A stretch of 64,000 nt of DNA, taken from assembly GCA_023053575.1 (NCBI GenBank), contig JAKZAP010000022.1:14984518-15048517 (forward strand), in the 5' to 3' direction. The notes beneath the pieces are model-generated. The model saw only the letters and a list, made by a program, of their open reading frames with translations, did no database searches and was not told where the DNA came from. Both the position numbers and the translations under genes were made by a program. Every line of letters starts with the position of its first letter. Within the stretch, counting starts at the first letter, position 1. This stretch comes from Branchinecta lynchi (lineage: Eukaryota; Arthropoda; Branchiopoda; Anostraca; Branchinectidae). Below, one piece after another: positions 3,644 to 59,818 of this stretch.

Positions 3644-3651
3644 AGTATAGG

Positions 3652-4837: not shown

Positions 4838-4859
4838 TGCAGATCGAGCTACCTCGGAC

Positions 4860-5150: not shown

Positions 5151-5192
5151 CCTCGAACATGTTATGCACATGGACGATTCCAGATCACGAAG

Positions 5193-6949: not shown

Positions 6950-7049
6950 NNNNNNNNNNNNNNNNNNNNNNNNNNNNNNNNNNNNNNNNNNNNNNNNNNN
7001 NNNNNNNNNNNNNNNNNNNNNNNNNNNNNNNNNNNNNNNNNNNNNNNNN
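6950..7049. other. Assembly gap, 100 N
   Basis: Exactly 100 N, a conventional placeholder for a gap of unknown size. The flanking sequences are unrelated. Order and distance across it should not be trusted. Confidence 0.98.
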
Positions 7050-20492: not shown

Positions 20493-20605
20493 AGACCACT
20501 CATTTCCTAGTAACCACTCATTTCCTAGTATTGGGGAAAGCCTACAGTTCTAAGCTGGGCGCCTTAGTGGCTGGGGATTTTTTGCATGTTGCATGAACAG
20601 AAGGG

Positions 20606-20990
20606 ATTAGTTGCGTTTCTGATCCGAATTCTCCTATGTCGCGTTTTTGGACTATTCAGATGAAGTGAGTTCTCGTTTTCTCGCGTTTTTGTCAGAATTG
20701 AGAACGGGGAAAGCCTCGCGATTCTGCAGAATCGAAAAGTTGCTCCGGTGGTGAATTCTCGATTCTGGTCTCTCCATTGTCCTCCATGATTGGTCAACAG
20801 AGTGCGGGTGTTCAATATGCATACAAACGTATACCGGGTTGCGGACGAGCTGCAAAACTAGTGTTTTTGTCAAAAGCGAGAATGGAGAAGTCAGAGGAGC
20901 AAACATGGTAATTTGTGCGAGAATCGAATTCAGAAGTGATGATTCGGAACGGAGAATTTGGATCAAAAGCGCAAGTATTGTCAGTAGGAC
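20606..20990 (+). repeat. Dispersed repeat with GAATTCTCGATTCT motifs, copy 1
   Basis: Shares ATTGGTCAACAGAGTGCGGG and surrounding sequence with 59168-59410. Copy A of the segmental duplication (6830-6949) is cut by the N gap inside this repeat. Confidence 0.75.
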
Positions 20991-36050: not shown

Positions 36051-36567
36051 TTAGCCAAAAAGACCAAAAATGTTCCTAAATCTCGCCCCCCTCTGCCTCT
36101 GCGGCGGAGCTTGCGGCCTCTGATTAAAGGCAGGAGTGACCTGTTGTGCCGCTTGCGGCACTAAGAAGGAACACTGCACCCGACACACCGAGTCCGCCAG
36201 GATTGCATCTCTTCCCACTTCCCCTAGGAGTCTCTGGCAGTCCACCCGCAAAGACTGGCACTGAGCCCCCTCTCCCGTGCACGTGCAAGACGTACAGGGG
36301 GAGACAAGGCTAGAAGCCCCAAGGGCGATGGTTTTGCCCTGGGCAACGCATGAACGATCGGAGTCCCTCCACGGGGTGAAGTCCATCGCGGGTAGGGAGC
36401 GGCAGGCTACTCGTGGGTTTAGGAAGTTGTGCGGGACGTCGAAGGGGGATCGGTTGACTTCGGAGATGGTGTCCGAGTTTTCGCAAATTAGTCGGGCGAA
36501 GTTCACTTTGCGAATCTCCGCCAGTTGGGACTCGGTGAATTTTCCGTTCAAGTTGCCATTTTCGTAC
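36051..36567 (-). CDS. DBLOX: Peroxidase exon 13: end of domain 2 and Cys-rich tail, stop codon
   Basis: 517 bases after TTCTAG, ending in TAA at 36053-36051. It starts YENGNLNGKFTESQLAEIRK and closes the peroxidase domain, then a tail with SPCTSCTCTGEGAQCQSLRV that resembles a partial VWC-type CxxCxC module seen at the C-terminus of some arthropod peroxidases, a further Cys pair (CRVQC), and a Gln/Pro/Arg-rich end. No obvious AATAAA lies in the 100 bases downstream; intergenic repeats follow. Confidence 0.93.
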
Positions 36568-39500
36568 CTAGAACAAACGGACGTTAGCCAATGTTTCTAC
36601 AGGTTTAGGGGATAATGTTATCTTTTCGAAAACATAGAATTTAAAGGACCCATTTTGCTTTTTTCTGTCTTTTGTATTATCCCTGAATCCATGGGTTTAC
36701 AAGCTTCGGAAAACCCCGCTTGCATTGTCTCGTGGTGTCCCTACGACTTGTTAGCGCTTTTCCGGCCTAGCCGAGTTTTGCCTGCAAAGTAACGCAAGGA
36801 AACTTTCAAGGTCCTCTTTCCACGTACATGAAAAGCTTCAAATGTTGTTTTTTATTTTGGAAGATATGGCAGACCATCTGGTCTATCTTCTGTTTTGCTT
36901 AGCCAGCCCACACTCCAACCACGGCGCGTTCAGTTATCCTGACTTGAACATTATATATCGACCCCTTCGACCTTCGATTACACTAGATCTCTGATCTCTC
37001 CGACGTCACACAGAATAAACAAATGAATGTAGGCATCCACGCTCAGAGCTATACTAGTTTGAGAACAAAGGGGTAGGGACTGCTATAGCCGAAAACTGGT
37101 CGACAAATTCTGTGTCCGGTTTTTGCCGGATTCCGGTGCATCCAACCGCATCGGAGAGCTGGAAGGCTTGGTAGAGTCGACATGCGCAAACGAGAAAGTC
37201 GCTTATTTCACGAGGAAAGCAATGAATGGTAGACTGGCATACAAATATTCCTGAGCCATTTCGTCGTGAAAAGATCATTTCTTATGGTAAGAGCTGTGCT
37301 TTAAAAGAGTAAGTACTGTTAAAAATTGTCTGTCCAACATTTGATACATGAATGTGAGGAAGAACTGAAGATAATTTGAAAGAAAAAAGTTACACTTTAG
37401 TTGGGAGAAGACTCCGACAACGGAGTACCTGCGTTTCCGTTTGTCCAGCTGACTGAGCTGGGTTTGACGGATGTAGTCTCATTTCTCGCGCTGTGAATGT
37501 TCCCTTTATCATCATGGTCATCAACAACACACTCATTTTCAGATGAATCGATGGGGAGTCGATTTGATGAAGCGCTGAGGTCATTTTTTTTAGGATCAAC
37601 TATAAAAGGATTAAGTTGATTGTTTCAGTGAAGCCCGATGAAAAGTTTGTAGCCTGCGTAGTTGTACTGAAAAGTTCCCATGTATTGATGTGTAATAGTA
37701 AAGAATACTATCATTTAATGTGCCTCAGTCTGGGCCGAAGCAGTAGTATTCAGTAGCATCCTGTCTTGCTATAATAGCATCCAGTCTTGCTAACAGTAGC
37801 TTGAGTAGAATGCAGCAACACGGTAGCCTTGACATAGAAGCATGTAGTAGCATCAGTTCGTACTGCATGCTACTTTCCTGTACAACTTCATACTACTATT
37901 TTGAGATATATTTTCATCGGGAGTACAGCACGTACGTACATCAAATACGGAGGTACTCCCAGGGTGCTCGCGGTTTCTCGTCCGGGGAGTCTTCAGTAAC
38001 TGCCTCGCCTTATTTTCCTGATCAGATAAAGGGCACAACTCCTTAAAGATCAACTGAAGAGTTGTACCCTTAAAGTTGAACTGAAAGTTGTCCCCCCACA
38101 GCAAAACTGAGGCTAATCAAATTCTGAGCTTAATCAATATTTCCATGACCCCCCCCCCCACCCCTCTTGCCTAGGAGTCTCGGGCAGCGGTGGATAAGCT
38201 CCTACTCACCAGAATCTGTCGCATCTTCTCATGGTTCTGAACTGGTTTCCAATGATGCAGGCGAACGTGGGCCCAACCAACCCACCCTGGAGGGGTGTCT
38301 CAGACAATCCGCCAGTGAACAGATCGATATCGTCCACATGTGCATAGACTTGCTGGAGTCTCTGGATCACCTCTGGAACAACTTCTCTGGATAGATCTTC
38401 GAAGGTTGCTGCTTTTTTCAGGTTACAAGCTGCTCGATACTCGTTATAGGGGCGGAGACCGTGGTCACGACCTGAAAGAAAGGACAATTCGGTTATTTTA
38501 TAACCCATGAATAATCGTCGGTGTCGAGCGGAAACCGCGTAACTGGTCAAATTTGCGATTTCCACTTTTTGAGACTGTTCTACTCGCCGGATTGCCTCCG
38601 ACTCTTAGTTTGGGAACAACCAAGATGGAACCACGTATCTCGGATTAACATGGGGGCTGTACTACTAACGAGAAAAAGTTATTATGTTTTTTTCACCTCC
38701 TGGAAAGTTTTGAAAAAGGGAGATACATGGTTTACGCTTGACACCGACGGTTAATGTTCTTTCAGCCCAAGCTGACTGCGCATCATAATTGACAGTGCTA
38801 AACGCATATGTCAGCGAATTTTGTTAGAGCTATATTTGGTCCCTTCTTGGCAAGGGTCCTCTTCAGCCCGACGAAAATTTTCGAGTTTTAAGAGCATGCA
38901 GTAGCAACTGTTAAACTGCATGACGATATAGCAAGACACGATGCTACTGGATGCTGCTTAAGTTTTGCATGTCTGAGGCAAATTAAACGGTAGTATTCTG
39001 TACTACTGCGTATTAATCCATGCAACTTTTTCGTACAACTATCATACAACCCCGATGAAAAATTTGTAGCCTGCGTAGTAGTATGGCAGTAGTACGAAAA
39101 CGTTGCATGTAAGACTATGTAATAGCAAAAAATACTATCATTTAATGTGCCTCAAACTGGTCCAATCTTATGTAGTAGTATCCAGTAGCATCCTGTCTTG
39201 CCATAGTCGCATCCAGTCTTGCTAATAGTAGCATCGTTAGTACTGCATTCTACTTTTTCGTACTACTTCATACTACTATTTTGAGATAACTTTGTCATCG
39301 GGACTACCTGCAAATTTGTCATTAGGAGGCTCATGCTGGAAAATGAACTTCAAACAAATATGGCTCTAATAAAATTCCGCTGACGTTTCGGTTTGTCACT
39401 GTCAATTTATAACCCATCTCAAAAAAAGGAAGTCGAGACGCCAAAAGATCAAGTAAGAATCATAAACAAAACAAGCTTACCCCCTCCAAGTTTCAAAAAC

Positions 39501-42500
39501 TGTATTTTTTCTTACCAAATTCAAGACTAGGTTGAGTTTCTGTTGTTTCTTTTAATTCTGACATGTTGACAGCCCTGCAGTAGCTGTAATTAGTTTATGC
39601 TTGCTTGTTCTATCGCTTTTGATTAGGAGGGACAGTCGCAGCAGGACGACGTCTGTTTTTAATTTTCATAGGATGATTGACGATCAACAGTCATCGCAGT
39701 CTCGCAAGACATTGACCCCCCCCCCCCCCCCTCCCTCAGAAAAAAGGAGTTTGTATTCTCTATGGGTGTCAGTGCCTTGCAAATGATTACTGCATTTCTT
39801 GCACAATCAGCTTCGCCTAAAGAGTACAGGGATGAGCTGAAGCTAGCTAGGTGTGGAGGGGCAGAGTATGGAAGCGCTGTCAGTCAAATGGTAAGTTGCG
39901 TTTTTGCAGATATCATGGTTTCTGTTACCACGATAACTGGATCTGCTACTAGTCCGTTTTTACAGTTATCGTGTTATCTGATAAACGGTTGCTCTGCAAA
40001 AACGACCATTGCCGAAATTGTGCTTTTCGCAGTCATTCCAAAAGAAAAACTGATATCCAGTTACGTCAGTAAGTGTTAAACTTCTTTCTCAACAATTTGA
40101 TGAAAGTGAGATAACTTTTCAGTTACCACGGTCGGACCGCGCTATCTGAATATCAGACACCATGATAACTGGCCAGATACGAACAATAACTGTATCTAAT
40201 ACCACGGTAACTAAAACGACTTTAGACCGTGGTGTCAGAAACCATGGAATCTGCAAAACCGCAACGATAAACTCGGCGACGGAGAAAGAATGATCCACGA
40301 TCATCACCCTCTTGTGTGGCACTTCTTAACTAAATTGATACCCTCTATGAGGTCACCGCCTGTAGCAAATAATTGCTGTCTTTTATGCGCGGACTCTTAC
40401 GCTAAAAAGTGCAGGGATGGCTGTTCACTGTTTCAGCTTTATTTTTTTTAATCGAACAACTTACCTCTTTGAATATTTAGAGAGACCAGATCCAACCCGG
40501 AGAACGGGAAGTTCTTCGACTCAAACAAGTGGTTTGTGATTTCATTCGTGACGAATCTATCCAGATTTTCCATAGGGGTGGCGAACATACCACGGACGAG
40601 GTCGTCAAGCATGTTTCCCTACAAAAGCAAAAATTAGGTCAAGGCACTGTGCCCTTCTCAGATGACTCGATCTCTCCTTATTTTGGCTCGTAACTAGTAA
40701 CAGTAATCTACTTTAAACTAAAGCCTTGTGGCCATAGTAGAAAACGTAAAACAAAATAAAACCGAAAACAGAACCCTCTGACCAGTAGCCTACTTTGTCG
40801 GGTGGGACAAGTGGGAGCCTGATCCGCCTCGAAAAGTATCAAACACGGAAAATGCAAGAAGCAGTGTATTGCCGTTATGCTTAGAAAATACATTGGAAGT
40901 TGTGAATCTCGATAATGAGCACAAACAGAACGATTGAAGTTTAACTAAAAAGCCAACTAACTTTTGTGTCATTTAATTGGATACACTGAATTATTTGGAT
41001 TCTGCAACTTTTCCCCCGGTTTTGAGTAATGTATTATAGTGTTTCGTTGTTAATTTTGTGTTTTGTTGTTGTTTGAAGATGTATATGGCCCTTGTTGTCC
41101 GTTGATTTAGTCAAATAAAATAAATAAAGGGCCTTTTTTTATTTTCCAATGTCTGCTCTGGTTATGACGTTCAGAAAATCTGCGGGCGTCTCCATAGCGT
41201 AAATTCTACTATGACGCGGGAAATTTTAATCTCAACACAAACGCGGCTTTTCAGTTGCCAGTGGTGAGATTGGTGAAGACTGCTTAGTACCTGAACAAAA
41301 AAAAAATCACAAATCTTTCTCGCAAGCATACAACACAGATATAGGTGCATAGAGGTACCACAAACCACACGGAAATTCTACTATTTGAAAACCGATTATC
41401 CGTGAATAGCGGAACAACAAAGTAACGCATTAAATGAGTAAGACAATTTAAATGAGTAAGTGAAGGGTACCTGGTCCAATCCCAGCCTTTTTCGGTTAAA
41501 CTTTAAGAACATACGCTGTATGGTTAATATAGGTACGAAGACTGCTATTGTCTTTGGGCACGGGGAGTCCTCTAACCCTTGAAAAAGTCAGCCGGGCATG
41601 ACCACAGAAAGTGTTCCCTGTGCGAAATTCCCAGACAGACAACCTTCCCGGTTTTTAATTCCTAGGAAAGATGCCATTCCAACCCCCAAAGACACACAAT
41701 TATTACGGGGAAAATGTAGCCGACTTATCCGTTTTGGTTCGTCAAATATGATTCACATTGAGCTTGGGCCGAAGTGAATATCCTTTTAGTTTTTCAAGTG
41801 AAGTGGGGTGACCCCCCCCCCCCCCCCTAAACATGTGCTAGTTACCAATGGGTCAATAAAAGATAATCAGCCGTATGGATTTTAGGCCCGAAAAGACAAG
41901 GTTAACAGTCAGAAGTTCAGTAACACTACACGGATGCGCAATTTGGATGTCACCTGCAAGTAGCCTATTACCACTTTTAAGTGAATGTTATCTGCAAGTG
42001 TTTATGACCTTTAATTGTGAATTTTAAAGTTAATTGCTCAAAAATAAAAATAAAATTCAGGAAGTTAAAAATAATTAAATTATAATGTATAATATAGTTC
42101 ATAATTCAAATTCTGAAGTTTGGAGTTTAAATTTTGAAAAGTAGGTTGTTTTTAGATATCGTGGTTGCGTGTTTGTTGGAGATAGTTTGTAGCAACTGAG
42201 TACAGTTGGAGTTTATATGTATAGTGGTAATGGATTACGCGTCTGTAGATAAGAAATAAAAGTATAAACAATATTAAAGAAAATAAGATTTAGTAAACAC
42301 TATAGGAGAAATGATTAAAAGATAAAATGTGGATTTGTAATTTAAAATTTATAAAACAGTTTAATGATTGAAATAAAGATTATAGTTTTGAAGTATAAAT
42401 TTATAGTTTTTTTTTTTGTTGTTATAGAAAGAGTAGATGATTTAAAAAAAGAAGAAAAAAAGACGAAAGTGTAAGTAAATAATCCTTGAGCCCACGAAAG

Positions 42501-42633
42501 TGTAAGTGACGTTAAAGTAGGGTAAACTGTTAGGCAAATTTTGTATTAACGTCACTGAGTTGGAGGTGGAGACGTAGCCACTTGTTTTAGTTCGATCGAA
42601 AGCAAGAAAAAATGAAAAAGAAGCTACGCGGGA

Positions 42634-42685
<52 letters not shown>

Positions 42686-45600
42686 CCTTTAATTGTTAAG
42701 TTTTTGTTAAAAGTAGCCTACATTGCAAACAATATTTAGTGTTAGATTTTACGGAAACATAAGCTGAATCATTCAGAAAAAAACGACTCAAAACGGATTC
42801 AAAACATTGCAAATTCGTTTTTTCTGTCCGCAGCCTGACAAGGAAGGTTGACATATCTTTGTAGAAAATCCTAGCTCAGTTCTCCATTAGCCACGCATTA
42901 GGAGATACTTTTTGTTGTTTTGTATATTAACGTATAGTACGCAAAGTGCTGTCTACTGAAATTACGCAACCATATGTAGAAATACCATATAGCTTCTGAT
43001 AGTGTCCCCCCCCCCTAAAACGATTTGAGACTTACATCCATGAGGGTTTCAGGGTTGAAGAATCCGGCGCGGAGTGGCAAGCGTGCCGTCTCTTGGAAAG
43101 CAGTGTTCACTCTTGGGAAGAAAGGACGGACAAGACTGTGGCCGAACCGGTAGGCGGCGCTGGCGAACTCGTTGAACACCTGGCCGTTGCAGTTAGCGTC
43201 ATAACCTGAGAGAGCGAAAAGATTAGACGAGATGGAATGTTTGTCGGTACTTTTAGATGGATTAGCGTGAGGATCAACCTAGTATGAACTGGAACTAATC
43301 TTAGTCGAGAAGGCCCTCTATGGATGATGATGACATTACATCAAGATGGAAGGTTATACAAGGGACCTTGTACCGTGACCCTCATGTAGCTCAGTGGTAG
43401 AGACACGGGTCGTGGGTTCAAATCCAACTCGAGGATCACTTTTGTCTTTCAGCTCACTATTATGATGATGGAGAACTTGCTTCTCATTTCTGTGACAATT
43501 GGAGTCTTAAAGGACACCTGAATGAAGAGTGCCAAGTATCATCCCTATCTGTATGACTTCCGTTAACATTGCCTGCAGAAAATTCAGTTCAAATACGAAA
43601 TAGTGTTTCCAAGCTATGATTTTTGCCCCATTTTGCATCAGTACTGATTTCAGTACCGAACAATTTTAGAAATGAACAAATGTCTCCAATCAACACTTTT
43701 TCTGGAATACTTTTCAACCAGTTAAGCCCAAACGTATATCTAGAAGAAGTTCCAGTACGATCCGGCCAGAGCTGTACAAGATTTGAATGAATTGCGCTTT
43801 TTGTCTTGGAGTCTGCATGTGCAAACCTCCAGAAACGAACATCCCTATTTTGAAAACGTCACGCTCAGGAGAAGAATGCTCTCCGTGGCCATGTCTGTAA
43901 ATGCATTCTCCATGGTGTGTTCAAGTATGGTTTCATTGTTCAGGTGTCCTTTAAAGGCACAGAAAACTTGACTACGCAACTTTCGGCCATCAAACCGACG
44001 GGGGGGGGGCTTAGATAAAGATACAGGGACTTATTGTCGACAGGATCCCCTTCTTTGTTATCTCGAACCCCCTCCTTAGTGTTCCCAAAGCTAGCTGGCA
44101 GGCCCTTGCCCCTTGTGCACTGTAATTATGCACTTATGCATTGTAAAAGTTCGCCTTTGGCCGTGTTTCGGCCATACTATCGGGGTAGAAGTCAAGAGGT
44201 CGTGCGTTCGGTTCCTACTCCCGGCACACAAACTTTTTGCTTTTTTTTTCTACTAACTCAAAAGTCGAATTCTCGGAAACTGCCCGGAAACTGCAATGGT
44301 CGTAACGAGAATTTGTCTTACTCTCAATATCGACTCAGGGTACATTTTTCATATGTCAGCTAGCTCCCCGAGTCAAGTTTTCTGTTCCTTTGACCTGAGT
44401 TCAAAGCATAGAACTCTGTAGCACAAGTTTTTGTGTCCAATTCTGTCACAAATTCATTAAAAAAAAGTCGTTGCCCCACGCGGTAGGAAATCAACGACGG
44501 AGCACAAAAACCCATCTGAGACAAACAATCAAATACAATAGTTGCGTTTTCGCTGTTACCATGGTATCTGTTACCACGGTAACTGGATCTGCAATTAGTC
44601 GTTTTTGCAGTTATCGTGGTATCTGATACACGGTGCTTTGCAAAAACGACTACTGCCGAAATTGCACTTTCGAAGTCATCCCAAAAGAAAAACAGATATC
44701 CAGTTACATCACTAAGTGCTAAACTTCTTTCTCGCAAATTTGACAAAATTTGATGAAAGTGAGATGACTTTTCAGATACCACGACCAGTTACCACGGTCA
44801 GACCGTAGTATCTGAATATCTGATACCACGATAACTGGCCAGATACCACGATAACTGCAAAAACGCCTCTTGACCGTCGTATCAGATACCACGAAAACTG
44901 CAAAAACGACTTTAGACCGTGGTAACAGATACCATGGTATCAGCAAAAACGCAACTAATGCAAAGAATAGTAGCCTATAGCTTTTCGTATTAATTTAAAA
45001 GAGCTATATTACTGATTCACTTTACACCTCTAATCGTTTCATCGATCGTTACTCCCGGGAAATCCGAACTTCCTACATATCGCTTCTCCATCGTTACTAC
45101 GCTGATTCTTGCATGTTCTATTCGGCGCTTAACGAATATATCAGGACCCGCTTGTCGCTTCCGAGGAGCTTATTGGTCAGAACTGTTTATGCAATTTTTA
45201 CCGTGTTTCTCATAGAGTTAGAGGAGCTGCACGAGGCTGAAAACAACCAGACGGGTTTGCAATCTTTTTTTCACAGAAACCATATACGTTAGAATATTGA
45301 AATATAAACTGTAGACTATCTACTATGAAATGTGCTTTAAGTGGCTAAACCCGATGAAAAATGTATCTCAAAATACTACTATGAAGTAGTAGGAAAAAAC
45401 AGCTCGCAGTACTAACGATGCTTCTACTTCAAGGCTACCGTGTTACTGCATACTACTATATGCTACTATTAGCAAGACTGGATGCTACTATGGCAAGCCA
45501 GGATGCTACTGGATACTACGACATAAGAATGGACTAGTCTGAGGCCCATTAAATGATAGTATTCTTTGCTAAAAGATAGTATTACATGCAACGTTTTCGT

Positions 45601-51600: not shown

Positions 51601-54600
51601 ATATGACGAATAAAGAATATATTTCTTATTGGTAAATGTTTCAAGCACAGAGCACAGGGGCAAAAAAAATTAATAATATATTAAATTCTAATGGACCATA
51701 CCGCGGTCGGATGCGGTTCGAACACGTAAACGCGCCTCTCCACTGCCTTCTAAGCGAGCATCGGATCACCCGTTCGCAACCACTCAGGTCACAGGATCCC
51801 GGATCCCCTTCGCTAAACCCCATTCTCAAGAATGACCGGATCCGGTAATGGGATCCTTGAACAGTGGGTCGGGGTGCACTTTATTCGCATACAAAGTTTC
51901 ATCATTTCGGCTGATCTAGCCGAACTACCAAAAGCTGAACAAAGGGAGGAAAAAGAGGACATACTGACAAGACATTATTTCTCATTTACTGATGAACGGT
52001 AGACAGTATTCACATTCTTAATCTAACTAACTATCACTGACAGACTCTAACTGACGTTTCTAACTAACGTTTCTAACTGACGTTTCTAACTGACGTTTCT
52101 AACTGACGTTTCTAACTGACTGAACATCTTTAACTCAACTCACTAGCCACTGGCAGTCACTGTAAAAAGTGCCCGTAAGGATTAAAGTTAACTGCAGAAT
52201 TTGCTACTGGGATTAATCTTATCTCTACTAAAACAAGATTAATCCAAATTAGAGCTAATATTGTCTTTTTAGAGACAAGATTAATCCCAGTAGCAAATAC
52301 TGCGAGATTTTTTTTACAGTGTTAGTCATACTTCTTAAATGGCAACTGCCGAAGCAAAGATACCAATGACGCATTCGGTTGCTACTTGCTCAGGGGCCAA
52401 CAACTCGCGACTAAGTCAACATTCGTCACAACCAAGATCGCCGTGAACTACCACAAAAAGTGAAAAACTGCTGATTATTAATGGGGCTGGTGACGAGGGC
52501 TGCGAATGAGTGGATTCTACATAAAGTGCTTGAAGTTAGAGAGCTTACTATTGTTGAAGAGCGCATCTTCGTCTGTGCGTCTTTGTTCGAGCTTTTTCAG
52601 TGCTGCCACCATCGACAGTTCAAGTAGGTCATCCGGCACTTGGAGGGCTGGGCTATCGCTTTCCCAAAGGCTCAACTCAATGTCCGGCATCAGGTTGCAA
52701 GCGACTGGTGAGTTCCTGCAGAAACAAAATTCTTCGTAAGCGGGAAGGGAGGCGTTCCTGTTGGATTCACCGTGTCACCAGTTGGTGGTGGGGACCGGGT
52801 GGTGATAGGAGAACACTAGAGACGGGCTCAAGACGCCTTCTTCAAGGACTTGGAATCGTCTTTCACGGAGCTGTCGGTCCGCCAGAGCTGTGGACTCGTC
52901 TCGAGACGCCTTTTTCAAGGACTCGGACTTGTCTTCGACTCGGATTTGCTGGACTCGCAGCAGTTCTGGAGAACACGCATACTTCCGTTCCTATGTGTGG
53001 CATGTAATGAACTATGGATGCCATTTTTAGAGCGTGTTCCACCCTTCTAACAATAGTAACTATTAGTTACTATTTTCTTTCCAACCTCACGAAAAGCTAT
53101 TACGCTGACCGTTCGAACCTTCTCGAAATAGTAACTATTTGTAACCATCTGCCTACCATGCACGGTAGCGTAGTAAGTGTGGTAACTACGCATCTCTGTA
53201 ACGCGATTGGTCGGATTCCCCCGTGGCATGATATTCTGCTTGTAAATCGAATGATCGTTCAGAATTGACAGCCCCCAGCCTTCTCAGGAATTTCCCATGC
53301 ATCGCACTTACGATGTGGTCATGTAGCCAAGAACCATCCATTACGCTTACAGCATATAAGCACTCACTGAAGGGTGGGGTAGGGGTTATCTATTCTTCCT
53401 AGGGCTGACCAAACCGTCCTGCTGTCTGTTTCAACTCTTACAGCAGTGAGTAAAAAAAAATTATTTTCAGAAAAAGGAGGGAGATAATGAAATGGTTCCA
53501 GGCTTCAGTTCTACTTAAAATTTAACTGAAATGCCAACTTATTTTGTGTCATTTAATTGAGTACACTGAATTATTTGGTGCAATGGGATTTGTTTTTATT
53601 TTCCACTATCTGCTCTAGTTATGACGTTCAGAATATCTGTGGCCGTCCCCACAGCGTAAATTCTACTCTGACGCGGGAAATTTTAAGCTCAACACAAACG
53701 CAGCTTTTCAGTGGGCAGTGGTGAGACCGGTGAAGATTGCGTAGTGCCTGAACAAAAAAAAATGATGAATCTTTCTCGCAAGGCATACAACAAACAAGCG
53801 CATACTCGTCCCACAAATCACACGGAAATTCCACTATTTGAAAAACGATTAATCGTGAATCGCGGAACAACGAAGTAACGCATTTTCAGCGGGTCTTCAA
53901 GCCAGTTTAAGTCAACAAGTGATGGGTAACTAGATTGTCCTATCCCAGCCCTTTTCGGGAAAACTTTAAATACTTACAAAAAGGCATCCTTTTCCTGGAA
54001 AGCCCTGGGTGGTACAGCCTGGATATTCTTAAAGTTGTTACAAATCAAACTGGCAAGAGTAAGCTTCCTAATCTCTTGCAGCTGAAGACGTGTGAAAGAG
54101 TTGGGCGGCACGTCGTTTTCGTACCAGTAGCGATCGGAGCGACGCAAGAGCGTGAATTGGTGGGCCAATAGGCAGCCAAAAGTTGGACCGACGACAGCGC
54201 CACGTAGCGGGATTTCAGCTAGACCGGCCGTAAAGAGGTCGATGTCGCTAACGTTCCTATAATGAATGGAACGATATAAGAACAATCGCGAGTAAGGTGG
54301 CAATGTCACTAAGGGAAACTTCTCCGCTGCCACCACTTTAGTAACTTTTTGTGGTACACACTTTAAAGAAGAACTACGTGATGAAAAATTTATCTCAAAT
54401 AGTAGTATGAAGTAGTACGAAAAAGTAGCATGTAATACTAACGATGCTACTACATGCTTCTACTTCAAGGCTACCGTGTTACTGCATACTACTATATGCT
54501 ACTATAAGCAAGACTGGATGCTACTATGGCAAGACAGGATGCTACTGGATACTACTACATAAGATTGGACCAGTCTGAGGAACATTAAATGATAGTATTC

Positions 54601-57600
54601 TTTGCTATTACATAGTATTACATGCAACGTTTTCGTAGTACTACCATACTACTACGCAGGCTACAAATTTTTCATCGGGTAAAACCTGATGCTACTCCCT
54701 TTTTTTCTTACCCAACAAAAGGCGTCCAGTCCGCCGATTTTCGATTTTCCTTTGACAGCTGTCCTCATGCTTTTGCTCTCTATCCAAACCTATTCTTCTT
54801 TTCACAATTAATTTCCGCCTCTCGCGTCCTTTTTTATTTTCGACTTTCCTTTGACAGTTGTCTTCGTGTTTTTGCTTCTCTAACCATCCTTGATCGCTTT
54901 TTCACAGTTAAGTTCCACCTCTCGCGTCGTTTTTGATGGTACGGATTGTACAAGTCAATCAAAGACAACATTCGCTGGCAACGTTAGCCAATGCGCCTAA
55001 AAGCTAGTGTGCTTTCGCAATTGAGATAATGCGGAGTTAGCGCTTAGGAGCTGATATCGGTTTTGGTTTTCCCAAAGATAAAAAACTCGTCCCTGTTGTT
55101 TCCAGCCTTGCTCAGCCCACTTGGTTTTAATGAGAAACTTGCATTGCTGGCATTTTGACCAATCAGCTCCTCAGACGCCATACGCGGGAGCCTTATCTGG
55201 TCCGAAACACGACTAACACGGAAAATGCAGAAATCTATCTAGCGGACGATAGTGAAGACAGACATTATGAGCGTGTTTCACCCTGCTAACAATAGTAACT
55301 ATTAGTTACTATTTTCGTTCCAACCTCCTGAAAAGTTACTACGCTGACCGTTCCAACCTTATAAAAATAGTAACTATCTGCTTACCACGCTCGGGAGCGT
55401 TGTAAACGTGGTAACTACGACTCTACGTCATGCGTTTGGCCGGTTTAGCCCGTGGCACGATCTTTTGGTGAAAAATAGAAAAATGCGTTCCAGCCTTGAC
55501 GCCAAAAAGCCAAAATTCGTGACATCAAGCGAAGTAACTATGGTAAATAGGGGGGAATACGCTGTATATAGGAAGTCCGGAAAGGCGGCAGAGTTAATGA
55601 TACCAAAAGATTGGTAGATGGCGATGCGCCTCGTACGGCCTTGCAAACCATCTATCAAGTTTAGCTTTAAATTGTGCCGGACAAATTTTCTTTTATGTAA
55701 TAATTGTATATATTCAAGTATTTTACTCAGTTATTCAAGTATTTAAATGTAAAGGTCGACGTATTTAGTGCCATGTCGGCGCTACAAGTTGGATCAATAA
55801 ACATATCTATCTATCTATCTATCTATGAGTAATTTAGGTCCTACGGGTCATTTAAGAACTTACTGGTAAACCGTCTTCAGAAGTTGCACATTTGACAGTG
55901 GCATAATATCTCCGAGGTCATCGAACGAACTCGGCACTCTCAGGCCGCAAAACTTCCTCCACGACGTAAAGCCTGGTAAACCAAGGTCGCGCCCTCTGGT
56001 GATAATATCCGCTACTATGTCTTTGCCATGCATAATCCTTACTCCAGGGGTTACAGAAAGTCCTATGCGGTTTGCCATAGAGCTTACGAGACCTAGAATG
56101 ATCTCTTCGACCTGGTCGGAGGTCATGGCGTTGGGCATTTCGGCGACGGGCATGGATTGCTTCTTTTCTCCTTTCTATAAAATAAAGATAACAAATATTC
56201 AAAGTGGCTAGTAGATAGATCAGTGTATTTCAAAAGCAAAAAAACAAAATCAAAAATACAACTTAACAATCTTCTTAATTCTAAGCATTTGTCTATGTAC
56301 ACGCCCACTCGAGTAATAACGGTTGGGTTAGTATTACTCAAAATTTCCGGAAGTGACAAAATTACACCCTCTAGATAAATTTTCCTTAAATCAGAAAGCT
56401 TCGGGCATCTAGGGAGGAAATAGTCCAAATTTCCTTCCTCCTTCTCACAAAGTAGGCAAGCATACATCCGATCAGGAACCCCACTACCCCTCTCAAAAAT
56501 CTTCTGCCTGCTATGAATTGGAAGGTTAGTTGGGTCCAACGACATAAAACTTTCCCGGGTATATAATCTCAAAGTAACATGGCCTTGACACTAGCCTACT
56601 TTACCTTCAAAACTAGCGTCAGGGTTCTTCGCTCTCTGTGTTTCTGTACGAATCTTATTCTCCGAATTCAAGTTCAAAATGTATGTACGGATCAGTACAG
56701 AATTGTAAATTCTGCTATACAGCATATGACTCCTAACACATTTTGAATAGCACGTTTAAACTTCTGTTCGTGACTAAAATCATAAGAAAATACTCATTTC
56801 CTAAAAGCTTCCGTTACTGCACTTTTAAAGAATTTAGTTTTTTCAGGGCAAGGACACAATTAAGTTAAAAAGATTGCGTGCATTCGAAAGATCAGTAATT
56901 TTCAATAGCCTTCTTTTCTTTTTGTAACTGTCCGTTGGACAGTTTTCCTTACAAAACTGTGCGTTGACAATTCTTATTGTCTAAGGTCCCGGTATGCATC
57001 TTTCCGAATGTATTGTCGACCCTGACTTAGTTAGAAATATTGAAAAAGAACGAACGAGAAGAGTGAGTTCGCACCGTTTCAATGCCGTATTGATTTTTAT
57101 TCACGCGACACCCGGCGAATAATTTCCGCGTTTAGTTTCGTGCTCACAGAACGCTGATATATATTCGTCTAAGCAAACTGAGCGTCGCTAGTGGAATTTT
57201 TTTTCTCGCCGCGCCATTTCAATCAATCAATCAATTTAATCCGTGATATTACAATCACATATTCAAAATTAAACTAACACAGGACTGTTCTTTACTAAAT
57301 ATATACAATAATTTGATCCATTCGGTGGATCGGGGCAATAGTAAAGTCGACGGAAAAGCGGTAGAAATGGCCAGAACGGCATTCGGAAACTTTTCGGTAA
57401 CTTCTGACCTTGCAACAAAACTATCTATCGCTTACGGTCTCATAACATCAAAAGATTCAATTTAGTTTTCTAAAAGCATTTGACTAGCAGAGTAACGCCA
57501 ATTGTATGAAAGGAGATGACGGAATGCATTGTTAAAACAAACTTTGCGTTTTCATTTCAACTCCAAGTCGAAATTTTTCGCGTCACGGAAAATATTTGCG

Positions 57601-59818
57601 TTTTCGGCATCAAGCTTTATGTGGCCACAAACACAAATTCTCACCTCTGCTCAAGGCAAACTTCGAAAGTCGAGAGTCGAAAGTATGAGACGGAAAGCGA
57701 TAGCACCGAAGTTAGCACACAGACTGAACCGTGTTTGAATTAGCACCCGAAAGACGAGCAGTTGTGACGAATAATCTTGATGACTATCTCTCGTTGCGGA
57801 TTCAAAATCTCCGGCCTCTCCGGGTAGCTAGCGGAAGAAAGGCAGAAGTGGTGTCACAGCTGGTGCCAAAGATCGCGGTGATTGATTGACACAGGATTTG
57901 AGTCGTTAAGTTTGAGTTGTACGGACACGCTTACTCCTTCTTCCTGAGGATCACTGGCGTCTTAGGCCATATTCCTGTGCAGCGCTTCCAAGCGGACTAG
58001 TTTCTGTAAATCCCCCTAAACCTCACCATCAACACTTTTGTCAGACATAGTAAAATAGATCTACAGGTTATGGAGTAGAAAATCTGCAATCTGCGACCCA
58101 ACTAATGGGGGTTTTGCATATATCTCAATAGTAGAAAGGGAAAGTTACCCACTAACTTTGCGGATCTGACTTTTTACTATGTCTACACCATTGCTGATAA
58201 TGAGACAGTGGAGGATTAACAGAAACTAGTCCACTTGGAGCGCTGAACTGGAATGAGGCAAATTTCTCTGACGAAACCTTCGTCACGTCAATTTTATTTG
58301 CGCAATACCCGGCGAATATTCTCCGCCTTTAGCTTGGTGATTACATTATGCGGATTCGCTTCGACGATTTCGGTGTTAAATTCGCGCCGCGCCATTTTGA
58401 CTCCAATCGATACGCGGAAAAGATTCGCCTCATGTGCGAACTAAGCTGTATGTGCTCAAACAAAAATACAAAATCGCACCCTCACTCTCGGCAAACTTTC
58501 CGAAAGCTCGGACGAAAGTTGGCACAGACTGAATTGTGCTTAAATTAGCACGCGAAAGACAAGTAGTTATGACAAATTCTCGCCACATCACTAAACAACG
58601 TGATTTCTCTGATGAAACCTTCGTCATGCTAATTTTATTTGATCAACACCCGGCGAATAATTTCCGCATTTAGCTTGGTGCTTGCAGGACGCCGATTCGC
58701 ATTCGCGTTGGCGAAGTCGACGTCGCTAGCGGAAAAATTCTCGCCGCGCCATTTCAGCTCCGATTGCTCCGTGGAAAAGATTAGCGTTATGTGCAAACTA
58801 AGCTGAATGTGTTCAAATAAAAATACAAAATCGCACCCTCGCTCTAGGCAAGTTTACGAAAGCTCGCATAGTTGGTACAGACAATAAATTGCGGTTGTAT
58901 TAACACGCGAAAGACGAGTGGTCAAGACGAATTCTCACCATATCACGATAACGGCGTGTATCTTTGATGAAACCCACGCTGCCGACCTTCAACATACCCG
59001 GACGGTACTTAGGGTTCGATTTACATGACCGCAATAGTGGTCACAATTTGTAAATATGGTCGTCAGATTAGCATTGCTCATACAGGAAATGGTCTCATCA
59101 CCACACATGCGTAAAACCAAGATTGCAAAAACCTAAAGATGCTTTCCCACACAATCTGGCGCGGACATTAGTTGCGTTTTGATTCGAATTCTCCTTGCGA
59201 TTCTACTCGCAATTCTCCTATTTCGCGTTTTTGTTAGAATCGAGAATGGGAAAAGCCTCATGATTCTGCAGAATTGAAAGTTGCTCCGATGGTGAATTCT
59301 CGATTCTACTCTCTCCCTGATTGGTCAACAGAGTGCGGGTGTTCAATATGCATAAACACGTACACGGGGTTGCTGACGAGCTGCCAAATTAGTTTTTTGT
59401 CAAAATCCAGAGCAGCAGCAAAACTACACTGTAAAAAGTTTCTCCGAATAAGGATGCAGTATTTGCTACTGGGATTAGTCTTATCTCTATTGGGATAAAA
59501 TTAATCCGAATTAGGGTTAATTTTATCTCAATAAAGATAACTTTAATCCGAGTAGCAAATACTGCAAGATTTTTTTTTACAGTGTAAGCGTTATAGCATC
59601 CTACCGAAATTACGGTCGCGATCTCTTATCCACTCTCGTCAATGTGAAGAAAAAACAATTACCATTCCAAAGGTGTCAAACTTTTCGGGCATCATTGACA
59701 ATACGAAATCTAGAACAGCTCCGGCGGTGGCCGCCAGGGTACCAGGGTAGGCGAAGATGTCGTAATCAGAAGCATAGCCCGACTGCTTTGGCTTCAGCTT
59801 TAGGCTTTCAGTCAAACT
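36051..59818 (-). CDS. DBLOX: Dual-domain animal haem peroxidase gene (DBLOX-like), 13 exons seen, 5' end missing
   Basis: Seen: 13 exons on the minus strand (59818-59663, 56174-55864, 54256-53978, 52715-52549, 50920-50785, 50240-49918, 48722-48375, 47547-47341, 45911-45657, 43205-43036, 40618-40465, 38471-38210, 36567-36051) total 3285 coding bases (1094 residues plus stop). Every intron is GT-AG and all 12 junctions keep frame. The first four exons encode the back half of one peroxidase domain; the other nine encode a complete second domain and a Cys-rich tail. Known: animal haem peroxidases use H2O2 for oxidation or crosslinking, and insect DBLOX proteins carry two such domains. Domain 2 has the distal FGQFLDHDIT, GDARSSE, RFGHSL and LNIQRGRDHG motifs. 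Domain 1 lacks the His and Asn motifs, so it is probably not catalytic. The signal peptide and first half of domain 1 should lie right of 64000. The alternative, two adjacent genes, is disfavoured by the phase-perfect linker exons and the absence of a stop or new start between domains. Confidence 0.88.
36568..37633. other. Last peroxidase intron, right of final exon
   Basis: Nothing recognised apart from the splice acceptor at 36568-36570. Short frames at 37054-37278 and 37390-37599 lack motifs. Confidence 0.5.
37634..37921 (+). mobile_element. CCCGATGAAAA MITE, copy 1
   Basis: Ends CCCGATGAAAAGTTTGTAGC / TATATTTTCATCGGG; interior with repeated TAGTAGCATCC and TCTTGCTA strings. Confidence 0.82.
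38210..38471 (-). CDS. DBLOX: Peroxidase exon 12: domain 2
   Basis: 262 bases from TTCTTTCAG to TTCTG|GTGAGT. It encodes GRDHGLRPYNEYRAACNL, a segment with VDDIDLFTGGLSETPLQGG, and VGPTFACIIGNQFRTMRRC ending DRFW. The terminal Trp codon is split with the next exon, which supplies Tyr-Glu-Asn-Gly. Confidence 0.94.
38867..39302. mobile_element. CCCGATGAAAA MITEs, two adjacent copies (38867-39050 diverged and partial, 39051-39302 complete)
   Basis: The left copy starts CCCGACGAAAATTTTCGAG and is diverged; the right one is CCCGATGAAAAATTTGTAGC ... TTTGTCATCGGG. The two lie back to back. Confidence 0.75.
39893..40266 (+). mobile_element. GCAGATACC palindrome MITE, copy 2
   Basis: Ends AGTTGCGTTTTTGCAGATA / ATCTGCAAAACCGCAAC; same internal palindromes. 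In the peroxidase intron between exons 38471-38210 and 40618-40465. Confidence 0.85.
40465..40618 (-). CDS. DBLOX: Peroxidase exon 11: domain 2
   Basis: 154 bases from TTTGTAG to AGAG|GTAAGT. It encodes GNMLDDLVRGMFATPMENLD and then FVTNEITNHLFES and GLDLVSLNIQRG. The Asn of LNIQRG, which contacts the proximal His in family structures, is conserved. Confidence 0.93.
40940..41520 (+). repeat. Intron repeat, copy 1 (partner 53505-53965)
   Basis: TTTTGTGTCATTTAATTG, TTATGACGTTCAGAA, GACGCGGGAAATTTTAA and CTGAACAAAAAAAAA are shared with 53505-53965. A LINE 3' end (about 40995-41130, AAATAAAATAAATAAA tail) interrupts this copy only. A third partial copy covers 47050-47190. Confidence 0.8.
41521..43020. 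repeat. AT-rich intron with A-tailed retroposon
   Basis: A 48-base A run at 42636-42683 follows a sequence with GGTGGAGACGTAGCCACTTG and AGCTACGCGGGAAT, the form of a SINE or LINE 3' end. The rest is AT-rich with no motif. Confidence 0.5.
43036..43205 (-). CDS. DBLOX: Peroxidase exon 10: domain 2, proximal-histidine exon
   Basis: 170 bases from CTCTCAG to ATGGAT|GTAAGT. It encodes YDANCNGQVFNEFASAAYRF followed by GHSLVRPFFPRV. The His of FGHSL is the family's proximal haem ligand. It corresponds to the degenerate exon at 59663-59818 of domain 1. Confidence 0.94.
43379..43434 (+). other. tRNA-like sequence lacking an anticodon arm
   Basis: CCTCATGTAGCTCAGTGGTA (A box) is followed only 17 bases later by GGGTTCAAATCCAACTCGAG (B box), so the anticodon arm is missing. 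Probably a tRNA-derived SINE head or pseudogene. Confidence 0.5.
43511..43950 (+). mobile_element. piggyBac-like MITE, copy 2 (440 bp)
   Basis: Same family as 30711-31150: ends AGGACACCTGAA / TTCAGGTGTCCT, TTAA at 43507-43510 and 43951-43954, same internal sequence and same length. It lies in the intron between peroxidase exons 43205-43036 and 45911-45657. Confidence 0.87.
44539..44956 (+). mobile_element. GCAGATACC palindrome MITE, copy 3
   Basis: Ends TAGTTGCGTTTTCGCTGTTA / CAGCAAAAACGCAACTA. The interior shares GAAGTCATCCCAAAAGAAAA and GATGAAAGTGAGATGACTTT with the other copies. Confidence 0.88.
45350..45640 (-). mobile_element. CCCGATGAAAA MITE, 17 bp from a splice donor
   Basis: Ends CCCGATGAAAAATGTATCTC / CTACAAATTTTTCATCGGG. 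Opposite orientation to 37634-37921. The right end lies only 17 bases from the end of peroxidase exon 45911-45657, just inside the intron. Confidence 0.85.
45657..45911 (-). CDS. DBLOX: Peroxidase exon 9: domain 2, catalytic Arg/Glu exon
   Basis: 255 bases from CTCGTTAG to GAAG|GTACGT. It encodes GDARSSEQPGLTIFHTMFM, REHNRIAGQIQAMNP and VWQHIIFSEFVPRILG. In mammalian peroxidases the Arg and Glu of GDxRxxE are the catalytic Arg and the second haem-ester residue; both are present here. Confidence 0.94.
45952..46229 (+). mobile_element. MITE (278 bp), AGGGCGATTCTGGCG ends
   Basis: Ends AGGGCGATTCTGGCG / CGCCAGAATCGCCCT; flanking ACTAT / TATAG suggests an A/T-rich short target duplication. The interior has GATTCGCTTTCCGAAAAGCA and related self-complementary strings. 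Lies 41 bases upstream of exon 45911-45657 (in an intron). Confidence 0.82.
46780..46955 (+). mobile_element. LINE 3' end with (GTATCA)n tail
   Basis: 3' UTR-like GTACCTGACGAAAACGACAA ... TTTTACAATAAAGTATCAGT. The tail repeats are the mark of a truncated non-LTR insertion. Confidence 0.65.
47341..47547 (-). CDS. DBLOX: Peroxidase exon 8: domain 2
   Basis: 207 bases, acceptor ATTCTAG, donor GCAG|GTGAGC. It encodes ARDQVNQNTAFLDGSQIYG, a strongly conserved block (family form PREQINQLTSYLDASNVYG), then ends ANGLCFEA before the Gly shared with exon 9. Confidence 0.93.
47712..47868 (+). mobile_element. Mariner-like MITE CACTGTAAA, copy 1
   Basis: Ends CACTGTAAAAA / CTTTTTACATTG, flanked by TA on both sides; inner palindrome GCAGTATTTGCTACTGGGAT. 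No ORF. Confidence 0.88.
47935..48374. repeat. Intron with weak internal duplication next to exon 48722-48375
   Basis: CTGCTGCACxxACxTAGTC plus TGCTxTCC occurs at 48030 and at the splice donor (48366-48390), and CCGGGAAAACTTGTGACATG at 48310 resembles 48103-48125. Perhaps a duplicated exon edge. G run at 48091-48102. Confidence 0.4.
48375..48722 (-). CDS. DBLOX: Peroxidase exon 7: domain 2, distal-histidine exon
   Basis: 348 bases. Frame with exon 6 requires the acceptor TATTCCAG at 48723-48730 rather than the more pyrimidine-rich TTTCAG 16 bases upstream, which would put a stop in frame. The product runs YDDG-ISRPRWRSVTNRPLPSPRLV, then YTMILMQFGQFLDHDITMTP. In the family the Asp-His pair of FLDHD gives one haem ester bond (Asp) and the distal catalytic His. 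It ends with RSLAGQQRLG split by the next intron. Confidence 0.92.
48723..49917. other. Peroxidase intron, nothing firm
   Basis: Contains (AAT)n at about 49552-49570 and TA-rich sequence near the donor at 49860-49915. A frame at 49661-49846 has no recognised motif. Confidence 0.45.
49918..50240 (-). CDS. DBLOX: Peroxidase exon 6: start of domain 2
   Basis: 323 bases from TTTCTAG to GATGATG|GTAAGT. It begins PEFTRTRRQLFNNVAGFF and a Gln-rich stretch, then CRGNEDTLPCDHTTPFRTF and SGWCNNLANPSFGKQLTTF and ends RLLPAGYDDG. The CNNLxNPxxG and YDDG strings mark the start of an animal haem peroxidase domain. Confidence 0.93.
50440..50545 (+). mobile_element. LINE 3' end with (TTAC)n tail
   Basis: CCACTTTCCAAAATGGCGGG, TGAAAAATAAATTACTTACT: a truncated non-LTR 3' end. 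A G/C-run-bounded piece follows at 50570-50720 whose edges (CAGGCCCTTATCCAGGAATT / CCCTGGATACGGCCTTG) look like further terminal repeats. Confidence 0.6.
50785..50920 (-). CDS. DBLOX: Peroxidase exon 5: linker before domain 2
   Basis: 136 bases, acceptor TTTACCAG, donor ACAA|GTATGT. It encodes a segment with LGADPKSPVGTAFGFSRPS and then SLLLEYASLQFLQNLD. The frame used here is fixed by both splice phases; a longer overlapping open frame in the same exon is not used. The segment resembles propeptide or linker helices that precede peroxidase domains and has no recognised catalytic motif. Confidence 0.72.
51160..51297 (+). mobile_element. LINE 3' end with (ATCT)n tail, copy 1
   Basis: Nearly identical to 55683-55826: TTATGTAATAATTGTATATA, GCCATGTCGGCGCTAC, AATAAACATATCTATCTATC. 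Two recent insertions of one truncated family in neighbouring introns. Confidence 0.82.
51298..51450 (+). repeat. Repeat shared with 57800-57962
   Basis: AATCTCCGGGTAxCTxGCGG, GAGTCGTTGAGTTTGA and TTTACTCCTTCTTCCTGAGA occur in the same order in both. Confidence 0.75.
51451..52157. repeat. Intron stretch with AACTGACGTTTCT minisatellite
   Basis: 52046-52119 holds about five units of a 14-base repeat (CTAACTGACGTTTC). The rest of the stretch gave no firm call. Confidence 0.7.
52158..52321 (+). mobile_element. Mariner-like MITE CACTGTAAA, copy 2
   Basis: Ends CACTGTAAAAAG / TTTTTTTACAGTG with the same GCAAATACTGC inner arm; flanking TA not preserved. Confidence 0.85.
52549..52715 (-). CDS. DBLOX: Peroxidase exon 4: end of domain 1 and linker
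   Basis: 167 bases, acceptor TTTCTGCAG, donor AATA|GTAAGC. The first base completes Leu (TT|G) with exon 3; the product begins NSPVACNLMPDIELSLWES, the usual Cys...IPxIDLSxW end of a peroxidase domain. It continues into an acidic, probably helical linker (DDLLELSMVAALKKLEQRR) without a stop. The last base joins AT of the next exon. This exon is the key evidence that both domains belong to one polypeptide. Confidence 0.85.
53032..53245 (+). repeat. Dispersed repeat AATAGTAACTATTAGTTACT, copy 1
   Basis: Shares AACAATAGTAACTATTAGTT, TTACTATTTTC and ACGCTGACCGTTC with 55268-55480. Confidence 0.8.
53505..53965 (+). repeat. Intron repeat, copy 2
   Basis: Uninterrupted relative of 40940-41520. It ends just before the donor of exon 54256-53978, as the other copies lie near exons; it could be intragenic duplication or a dispersed element. 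Confidence 0.75.
53978..54256 (-). CDS. DBLOX: Peroxidase exon 3: domain 1, C-terminal part
   Basis: 279 bases between ATTATAG and TTTTT|GTAAGT. It encodes NVSDIDLFTAGLAEIPLRG, VVGPTFGCLLAHQF, RRSDRYWYEND and FTRLQLQEIRKLTLASLIC, the standard last segment of an animal peroxidase domain. It parallels exons 38471-38210 and 36567-36051 of domain 2, but here the two segments lie in one exon, so the two domains do not share intron positions at this point. Confidence 0.92.
54376..54679 (-). mobile_element. CCCGATGAAAA MITE, intron copy
   Basis: Highly similar to 45350-45640 (ACTTCAAGGCTACCGTGTTA, GATGCTACTATGGCAAGACA). Left end degraded (ACGTGATGAAAAATT). Confidence 0.85.
55268..55480 (+). repeat. 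Dispersed repeat AATAGTAACTATTAGTTACT, copy 2
   Basis: Partner of 53032-53245; contains GTGGTAACTACGACTCTACG. Both introns flank domain 1 exons. Confidence 0.8.
55683..55826 (+). mobile_element. LINE 3' end with (ATCT)n tail, copy 2
   Basis: Partner of 51160-51297, ending 38 bases before exon 56174-55864 on the intron side. Confidence 0.82.
55864..56174 (-). CDS. DBLOX: Peroxidase exon 2: domain 1, RGRD helix region
   Basis: 311 bases, starts in phase 0 (KGEKKQSMPVAEMPN) after TTTTATAG and ends CA|GTAAGT. It contains DIVADIITRGRDLGLPGF and then SWRKFCGLRVPSSFDDLGDI, a clear match to the animal peroxidase core. The usual reading is LNIQRGRDHGLPGY, so the conserved Asn is replaced (DIIT) and the His after RGRD is Leu. 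Splicing to the next exon restores Gln-Asn-Val-Ser-Asp-Ile-Asp. Confidence 0.88.
56215..56575 (-). mobile_element. LINE ORF2 C-terminal relic (Cys/His finger)
   Basis: The minus-strand frame has CLLCEKEEGNLDYFLPRCPK, a CxxC...HxxxC-like finger with Tyr in place of His, and downstream LSDLRKIYLEG, characteristic of the C-terminus of some non-LTR ORF2 proteins. 5'-truncated. Confidence 0.65.
56576..57515. other. Peroxidase intron, one minus-strand LINE tail
   Basis: CAATCAATCAATCAATTTAA at about 57222-57242 reads on the minus strand as a (TTGA)n-tailed LINE 3' end. Nothing else recognised. Confidence 0.45.
57060..58965 (+). repeat. Three diverged repeat units with CACCCGGCGAATAATTTCCG
   Basis: Units at about 57110-57770, 58255-58590 and 58597-58965 share GGCGAATAxTxTCCGC, AGCTTGGTGCTTxCA, CTCAAACAAAAATACAAAAT, GGCACAGACTGAA and CACGCGAAAGACGAGTxGT. 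Unit 1 is separated from unit 2 by the element 57971-58254 and a repeat shared with 51298. Confidence 0.78.
57971..58254. mobile_element. TIR element, ATTCCTGTGCAGCGCTTCC arms
   Basis: A left arm of about 37 bases (ATTCCTGTGCAGCGCTTCCA, GCGGACTAGTTTCTGT) is mirrored at the right end (ACAGAAACTAGTCCACTTGG, AGCGCTGAACTGGAAT). 284 bp, no ORF, not seen elsewhere in the window. Confidence 0.8.
59168..59410 (+). repeat. Dispersed repeat with GAATTCTCGATTCT motifs, copy 2
   Basis: Diverged copy of 20606-20990 (TTGCTCCGATGGTGAATTCT, GTGTTCAATATGCATA), interrupted at its right end by the CACTG MITE at 59427-59584. Confidence 0.75.
59427..59584 (-). mobile_element. Mariner-like MITE CACTGTAAA, copy 3
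   Basis: TA-flanked (59425-59426 and 59585-59586), ends CACTGTAAAAAG / TTTTTTACAGTG. Lies 78 bases downstream (3') of the donor of exon 59818-59663 on the minus strand. Confidence 0.88.
59663..59818 (-). CDS. DBLOX: Peroxidase exon 1 (first visible): domain 1, proximal-His region, degenerate
   Basis: 52 codons, phase 0 at both ends, acceptor TTTTTCAG and donor ATG|GTAATT. It encodes a stretch containing KQSGYASDYDIFAYP followed by AATAGAVLDFVLSMM. In active family members the second part reads like AAYRFGHSLV, with the proximal haem-ligand histidine; here that histidine is absent. It is followed in frame by exon 56174-55864. The preceding exon was not found before the right edge. Confidence 0.75.

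What the first reader, a model, noticed from the sequence alone, without database searches (positions are those of the whole stretch)
36051..59818. Two-domain haem peroxidase with an apparently dead first domain
Thirteen phase-compatible exons join two animal peroxidase domains in one polypeptide. In domain 1 the proximal-His block (FGHSL) is replaced by AGAVLDFVL, the LNIQRGRDHG block reads DIITRGRDLG, and only the fold remains. Domain 2 keeps FLDHD, GDARSSE, RFGHSL and LNIQRGRDHG. A pseudo-enzyme domain fused to an active one suggests domain 1 acts in binding, folding or regulation. The fusion matches the known insect DBLOX architecture; whether this lineage's version lost the same residues is open.
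Basis: partly seen in the sequence, partly recalled or inferred. Interest (0 to 1): 0.8.

Follow-up and report, generated by a model that had tools for sequence, protein, structure and literature searches.

The report
Double peroxidase with one dead domain
This crustacean gene makes one long protein with two peroxidase enzyme units joined together; the second looks able to work, while the first has lost the parts that hold its iron-haem but has kept its shape and its metal-binding site, as in most related proteins that we could compare.

Summary
Confirmed and extended. All 13 exons splice in phase with GT-AG borders. The window holds only the 3' part of the gene: eight more exons upstream on the same contig complete domain 1 (D1), giving 1515 aa without the start-codon exon. 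D1 matches Pfam An_peroxidase end to end (E 1.7e-147) but reads QFIQND, GDVRVNG, FVLSMM, DIITRGRDLG: the haem-ligand His, its Asn partner, the distal His and the Glu are gone; Arg and the cation site remain. D2 is intact.

Most likely D1 is a cation-stabilised folding or assembly domain (inferred). Loss of D1 motifs is in print for salmon louse. New member of a known kind.

The parts
59663..59818 (-). exon of D1 (phase 0 in, 0 out): SLTESLK...VLDFVLSMMPEKFDTFGM; holds the position of the lost haem-ligand His (Leu here)
   Evidence: splice sites and phase; alignment
55864..56174 (-). exon of D1: ...DIITRGRDLGLPGF...; lost Asn (MPO N421)
53978..54256 (-). exon of D1 C-terminal part (NVSDIDLFTAGLAE...)
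52549..52715 (-). exon just after the aligned D1: NSPVACNLMPDIELSLW... and start of linker
50785..50920 (-). exon: linker between D1 and D2 (GADPKSPVGTAFGFSRPS...SNTSLLLEYASLQFL)
   Evidence: homologous stretch in Artemia and Daphnia
49918..50240 (-). exon: linker and start of D2 (...CDHTTPFRTFSGWCNNL...)
48375..48722 (-). exon of D2: distal site GQFLDHD
47341..47547 (-). exon of D2: cation-site loop TAFLDGSQIYG
45657..45911 (-). exon of D2: catalytic Arg and Glu, GDARSSE
43036..43205 (-). exon of D2: proximal His, YRFGHSL
40465..40618 (-). exon of D2: LNIQRG(RDHG)
38210..38471 (-). exon of D2: RDHGLRPYNEYR...DRFW
36051..36567 (-). last exon: end of D2, VWC-like cysteine-rich tail, stop codon
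   Evidence: VWC E 1.3e-4, below Pfam's cut-off

Best explanation
The gene encodes a double peroxidase (DBLOX/DBLPX architecture: D1, linker, D2, VWC-like tail) of a crustacean close to Artemia. D2 is expected to be the active haem peroxidase. D1 keeps the peroxidase fold and its structural cation site but cannot hold or use haem in the normal way, because it lacks the proximal His, its Asn partner, the distal His and the ester-forming residues. Shown here by sequence: the domain order, the losses, the retained cation ligands, the intact D2, the wide sharing of the pattern. Inferred: the protein is secreted, and D1 works like the peroxidase-homology domain of DUOX1, as a cation-stabilised, haem-free folding and assembly domain that packs against D2 or a partner protein so that the enzyme is made, exported and placed correctly. 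The ancestral fusion probably had two active domains, and D1 lost haem while keeping the structural role.
Against: No transcript, protein or haem measurement. The structure model is of an Oratosquilla D1 with group A motifs, not of this D1, and no model of the two domains together was made. In group A (77 arthropod proteins outside this gene's group) D1 keeps distal His in 68, Arg in 77 and Glu in 70, which a pure scaffold would not need. In this gene's own group D1 evolves clearly faster than D2 (median identity 42.6 against 62.0%), which also fits relaxed constraint; the same holds in nematodes (45.6 against 62.0%).
Confidence: 0.6

Rival explanations
1. D1 has become a binding module: its surface or its emptied haem cleft holds a ligand (a lipid, a cuticle or matrix protein, a porphyrin) and brings substrate to D2.
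For: Mosquito DBLOX is said in one review and one 2026 paper to act in lipoxin A4 synthesis (passages read), so a lipid-handling role is conceivable. In group A the distal His, Arg and Glu are mostly kept without the proximal His, so the cleft is not freely decaying there.
Against: No RGD, KGD, LDV or NGR motif in the 1515 aa. Only five columns are more than 85% fixed in D1 and differently more than 85% fixed in D2 of group A, so no clear new-site signature was seen.
Confidence: 0.2
2. D1 in this gene is a relaxed remnant with little function of its own, kept because it is in frame with D2.
For: In the group of this gene D1 is less conserved than D2 in 100 of 100 pairs compared, and E242 is kept in only 1 of 15 rows, 2 of which lack the stretch.
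Against: 77% identity to Artemia D1 over 514 positions, no frame damage in the 8 exons that carry D1, the cation ligands kept in 14-15 of 15 in the group, and the D1 Cys framework kept.
Confidence: 0.13
3. D1 still binds haem weakly or with another ligand and has some activity.
For: R239 and Q91 are kept here; group A keeps the distal His in 68 of 77. A paper on C. elegans HPX-2 notes weak haem binding by human DUOX1 and DUOX2 without the covalent-link residues (passage read). [quoted passage not shown]
Against: This D1 lacks both histidines and has Arg 333 replaced by Asp, Gly 335 by Val and Asn 421 by Ile.
Confidence: 0.05
4. Gene-model error: D1 and D2 belong to two neighbouring genes, or the true His exon was missed.
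Against: Same fusion in the Artemia protein; two domains in one chain in 125 of 245 proteins returned, two of which (Strigamia P0158, P0195) are separate duplications; phases fit at all 20 junctions; no His-bearing exon on the strand of the gene between 52.7 and 65.1 kb.
Confidence: 0.02

Closest known systems
DBLOX / DBLPX double peroxidase of insects (Anopheles AGAP008350; aphid MpPxd14 and MpPxd23)
   Same: Two An_peroxidase domains in one chain and a VWC-like tail (aphid description read)
   Different: No dipteran sequence was in the set; this gene falls in a second, mainly crustacean paralogue group
LsPxtl-1 of salmon louse (PMC10579435)
   Same: Two peroxidase domains; classical distal motifs only in the second (passages read). 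Its D1 pattern R-x-x-H fits P0005 of this gene's group (GDERVNH)
   Different: Copepod D1 keeps the distal His (AHD); this D1 has Asn there. That LsPxtl-1 is P0005-like is inferred from motifs; the published GGxxAHD differs from P0005 (GEFVAHD) in one letter
Peroxidase-homology domain of DUOX1
   Same: Peroxidase fold, haem-ligand His lost, cation site D/T/D/S kept, fused to an active partner unit
   Different: DUOX carries a NADPH oxidase membrane part; here the partner is a second peroxidase domain
Priapulus caudatus double peroxidase (P0032)
   Same: Two domains of the same layout
   Different: Both domains keep all catalytic positions counted

Membership tests
Double peroxidase (DBLOX/DBLPX) | Two full An_peroxidase domains in one open chain | tested here: met
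   Pfam hits for D1 and D2; exon phases
Double peroxidase (DBLOX/DBLPX) | Catalytically complete D2 | tested here: met
   All seven positions counted (Q91, D94, H95, R239, E242, H336, N421) kept in this D2: it is not among the D2 rows with a loss
Double peroxidase (DBLOX/DBLPX) | D1 and D2 each group with D1 and D2 of other double peroxidases | tested here: met
   Tree of 94 domains: 43 of 126 two-domain proteins plus 8 other domains
Double peroxidase (DBLOX/DBLPX) | Orthology to the mosquito or fly gene that gave the name | not testable with these tools
Double peroxidase (DBLOX/DBLPX) | VWC-like C-terminal tail | tested here: inconclusive
   VWC E 1.3e-4 over the whole profile, 22.7 bits against a cut-off of 27.6
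Double peroxidase (DBLOX/DBLPX) | Signal peptide or N-terminal membrane helix | not tested
   The exon with the start codon was not found
DUOX | NADPH oxidase part fused to the peroxidase domain | tested here: not met
   Only An_peroxidase in the 1094 aa from the window; none in the N-terminal part; VWC-like tail below cut-off
DUOX-type haem-free peroxidase domain (works like) | Peroxidase fold without haem-ligand His, cation site kept | tested here: inconclusive
   Residues met for this D1; fold modelled only for a relative's D1; absence of haem not measured
Peroxidasin | LRR and Ig domains before the peroxidase domain | tested here: not met
   N-terminal 184 aa found so far: only the start of An_peroxidase; none in the rest
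Peroxinectin | Integrin-binding RGD/KGD/LDV motif | tested here: not met
   No match in 1515 aa

The most novel reading that the evidence does not exclude
The double peroxidase is an ancient ecdysozoan fusion whose first domain was turned, in nematodes and in arthropods, into a haem-free cation-stabilised domain, in parallel with the DUOX peroxidase-homology domain, while priapulids keep the two-enzyme ancestor and tardigrades show an intermediate stage (proximal His kept in 2 of 3, Asn lost in 3 of 3). One mainly crustacean paralogue then also lost the Glu, and its branchiopod members, this gene included, the distal His.
Probability: 0.45. Interest if true: 0.6.

Novelty: new member of a known kind. 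Interest (0 to 1): 0.42.

Why it matters
Double peroxidases are reported to matter in mosquito immune memory and, in the salmon louse, in larval survival, yet what the dead half does is not known to us from any paper opened here. The pattern (cation site kept in nearly every D1, haem ligand lost in nearly every D1) suggests that the dead half is selected for structure and gives a direct test: change the cation site of D1 and see whether D2 is still made. The priapulid with both domains intact, and a genome with two double-peroxidase genes at different stages of decay, make the steps of the loss testable by experiment.

Tried and rejected
A hidden His-bearing exon was sought between 52.7 and 65.1 kb on both strands and not found on the strand of the gene. 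Hymenopteran, lepidopteran and beetle hits that were inspected (P0040-P0044, P0106, P0126, P0168) turned out to carry one peroxidase domain with intact motifs, so they are not double-peroxidase rows. The two-domain Strigamia proteins P0158 and P0195, whose first domains keep the His, are separate tandem duplications: their two domains are each other's sisters. They are in the counts but were left out of the paralogue comparison and of the AU test. The priapulid D1 did not group with the other D1 in the best tree; holding all 42 D1 together is not rejected (AU p 0.325), so one origin of the fusion is possible but not shown. Two papers on mosquito peroxidases that I asked for were not held. Nine paper searches were made; of the papers opened only the salmon louse one describes a degenerate first domain of a double peroxidase. 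Most listed papers were not opened, and subscription journals are mostly not covered. Further tardigrade, onychophoran or priapulid genomes were not searched.

Full report
What is there. The window is C14:14984518-15048517 of a 575.7 Mb animal genome held as G000. They encode 1094 aa, with two Pfam An_peroxidase stretches (E 1.1e-263 for the whole). The best relative of the first 340 residues is an uncharacterised Artemia franciscana protein (79% identity), so the source is most likely a fairy-shrimp-like crustacean (inference).

The gene is longer than the window. The Pfam search of the genome found one more peroxidase exon about 1 kb past the window's end. With the Artemia protein as guide, eight more exons were placed at C14:15049597-15099492 (extended window coordinates 65080 to 114975), again in phase. 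The reconstructed protein has 1515 aa, D1 at 151-667 and D2 at 846-1392. The exon with the start codon was not found, so a signal peptide was not tested. Of seven introns inside each domain, two are at the same alignment column and phase in D1 and D2 (columns 37 and 299), as expected of a domain duplication.

Motifs. D1: WGQFIQND, GDVRVNG, VLDFVLSMM, DIITRGRDLG, cation loop TSYLDGSAIYG. D2: GQFLDHD, GDARSSE, YRFGHSL, LNIQRGRDHG. In MPO numbering (recalled, from no call), D1 has lost D94 (Q), H95 (N), E242 (G), R333 (D), H336 (L) and N421 (I), and has kept Q91, R239, R424 and the cation ligands D96, T168, D172 and S174.

How general it is. Three protein searches gave 245 proteins. The second and third list only the best 120 of 689 and of 1895 hits. 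With the window protein, 126 of 246 have exactly two domains each matched over more than 420 model positions. D1 keeps H336 in 5 of 126, N421 in 3, D94 in 4, Q91 in 53, H95 in 84, R239 in 101, E242 in 75; cation ligands D96 in 124, T168 (T or S) in 122, D172 in 125, S174 (S or T) in 125. D2 keeps Q91, H336, N421, H95 and R239 in 125 of 126 each, D94 in 123, E242 in 115, and cation ligand D96 in 118. The five D1 that keep H336 are Priapulus, two Strigamia proteins and two of three tardigrades. I assigned the groups of animals by hand from the names in the search tables. No holometabolous double peroxidase was recognised among the 126, so that large part of the insects is not covered.

Two paralogue groups. 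In trees of D1 and of D2 this gene falls with Artemia, Daphnia pulex P0002, copepod P0005, barnacle P0007, two decapods and the planthopper P0027 (99/98 for D1, 100/99 for D2; 15 rows in a larger, quicker tree). I call this group B, and the other 77 arthropod proteins group A; A is defined by exclusion and is one side of a branch only weakly for D1 (84/90) and not for D2. Daphnia pulex, salmon louse, the barnacle Amphibalanus, Panulirus and Petrolisthes have a protein in each; Penaeus does with two species (names; placement). The window's own genome has a second double-peroxidase gene at C21:12406831-12468101, found with Daphnia P0172 of group A. Its D1 reads WGELIYHD, GDVRVNE, ALRFFTSLI and QIIQHGRDHG, so the distal His, Arg and Glu are kept and the proximal His is lost; it was not put in the tree. 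Over group A, D1 keeps R239 in 77 of 77, E242 in 70, H95 in 68 and H336 in 0. Over 15 group B rows E242 is kept in 1 (2 rows lack the stretch), H95 in 11 (lost in the three branchiopods, missing in one row) and H336 in 0. Daphnia proteins of group A have also lost the distal His, so that loss is not peculiar to B. Median pairwise identity, D1 against D2: A 52.3 and 58.2%, B 42.6 and 62.0%, nematodes 45.6 and 62.0%. So D1 of group B has decayed further and changes faster, yet keeps its cation site and Cys frame.

Origin. D1 of arthropods, tardigrades and nematodes form one group (100/98), and D2 of priapulid, nematodes, tardigrades and arthropods another (100/98, with two single-domain Tigriopus proteins inside) (catalytic columns left out of the tree). 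The priapulid D1 sits by the D2 group (98/95), which speaks against one origin, but a single D1 group including it is not rejected (p 0.325). The simplest reading is an old ecdysozoan fusion of two active domains. The proximal His was probably lost more than once, since two tardigrades keep it, but the branch that decides this is weak (92/71).

What is known already. Two reviews and a 2026 paper describe mosquito DBLOX in oenocytes and in lipoxin or differentiation-factor synthesis and immune priming (passages read). The aphid paper describes the DBLPX architecture with a VWC tail (passages read). The salmon louse paper reports that LsPxtl-1 has two domains, that the classical distal motifs are present only in the second, that databases disagree on haem sites in the first, and that knock-down in nauplii causes poor swimming and death (passages read, PMC10579435). 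So a degenerate first domain is in print for one crustacean. The breadth across arthropods and nematodes, the retained cation site beside the lost haem ligand, the intact priapulid and the two paralogue groups were not met in the papers opened (searches listed under Tried and rejected).

Verdict. The gene is a new member of a known kind, with a useful comparative setting. The mechanism (folding and assembly domain) is the best-supported inference, not shown.

Noticed in passing
window 1-6949 and 13766-20727: A block of about 6.95 kb is repeated at 99.67% identity with an offset of about 13.8 kb, and the first copy ends exactly at the 100-N gap at 6950-7049. This looks like an assembly duplication at the gap, or a very recent tandem copy.
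   Followed up: partly
window 26765-30519 (+): Two overlapping open frames: 369 aa with CCHC-like motifs by eye (no Pfam match), and 898 aa with endonuclease and reverse transcriptase domains (Pfam RVT_1 E 3e-33). A non-LTR retrotransposon with open frames.
   Followed up: partly
G000:C21:12406831-12468101: Second double-peroxidase gene of the same genome, D1 without proximal His but with distal His, Arg and Glu.
   Followed up: yes
P0001 (Artemia franciscana), D2: The NCBI model reads FLGHD and FRFHSL in D2, where this window has FLDHD and FGHSL: either a gene-model or sequence error, or a further change in D2.
   Followed up: no
P0195 and P0158 (Strigamia maritima): Two-domain peroxidases whose halves are each other's sisters, so double peroxidases arose more than once.
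   Followed up: partly
genome G000: At least 81 exon-level An_peroxidase matches, in clusters on C4, C5, C7, C13, C14, C19, C20 and C21 and single ones on C2 and C10: a large peroxidase family.
   Followed up: no
P0081 (Dendrolimus kikuchii, 2698 aa): A predicted protein with four peroxidase domains, perhaps a fused gene model.
   Followed up: no
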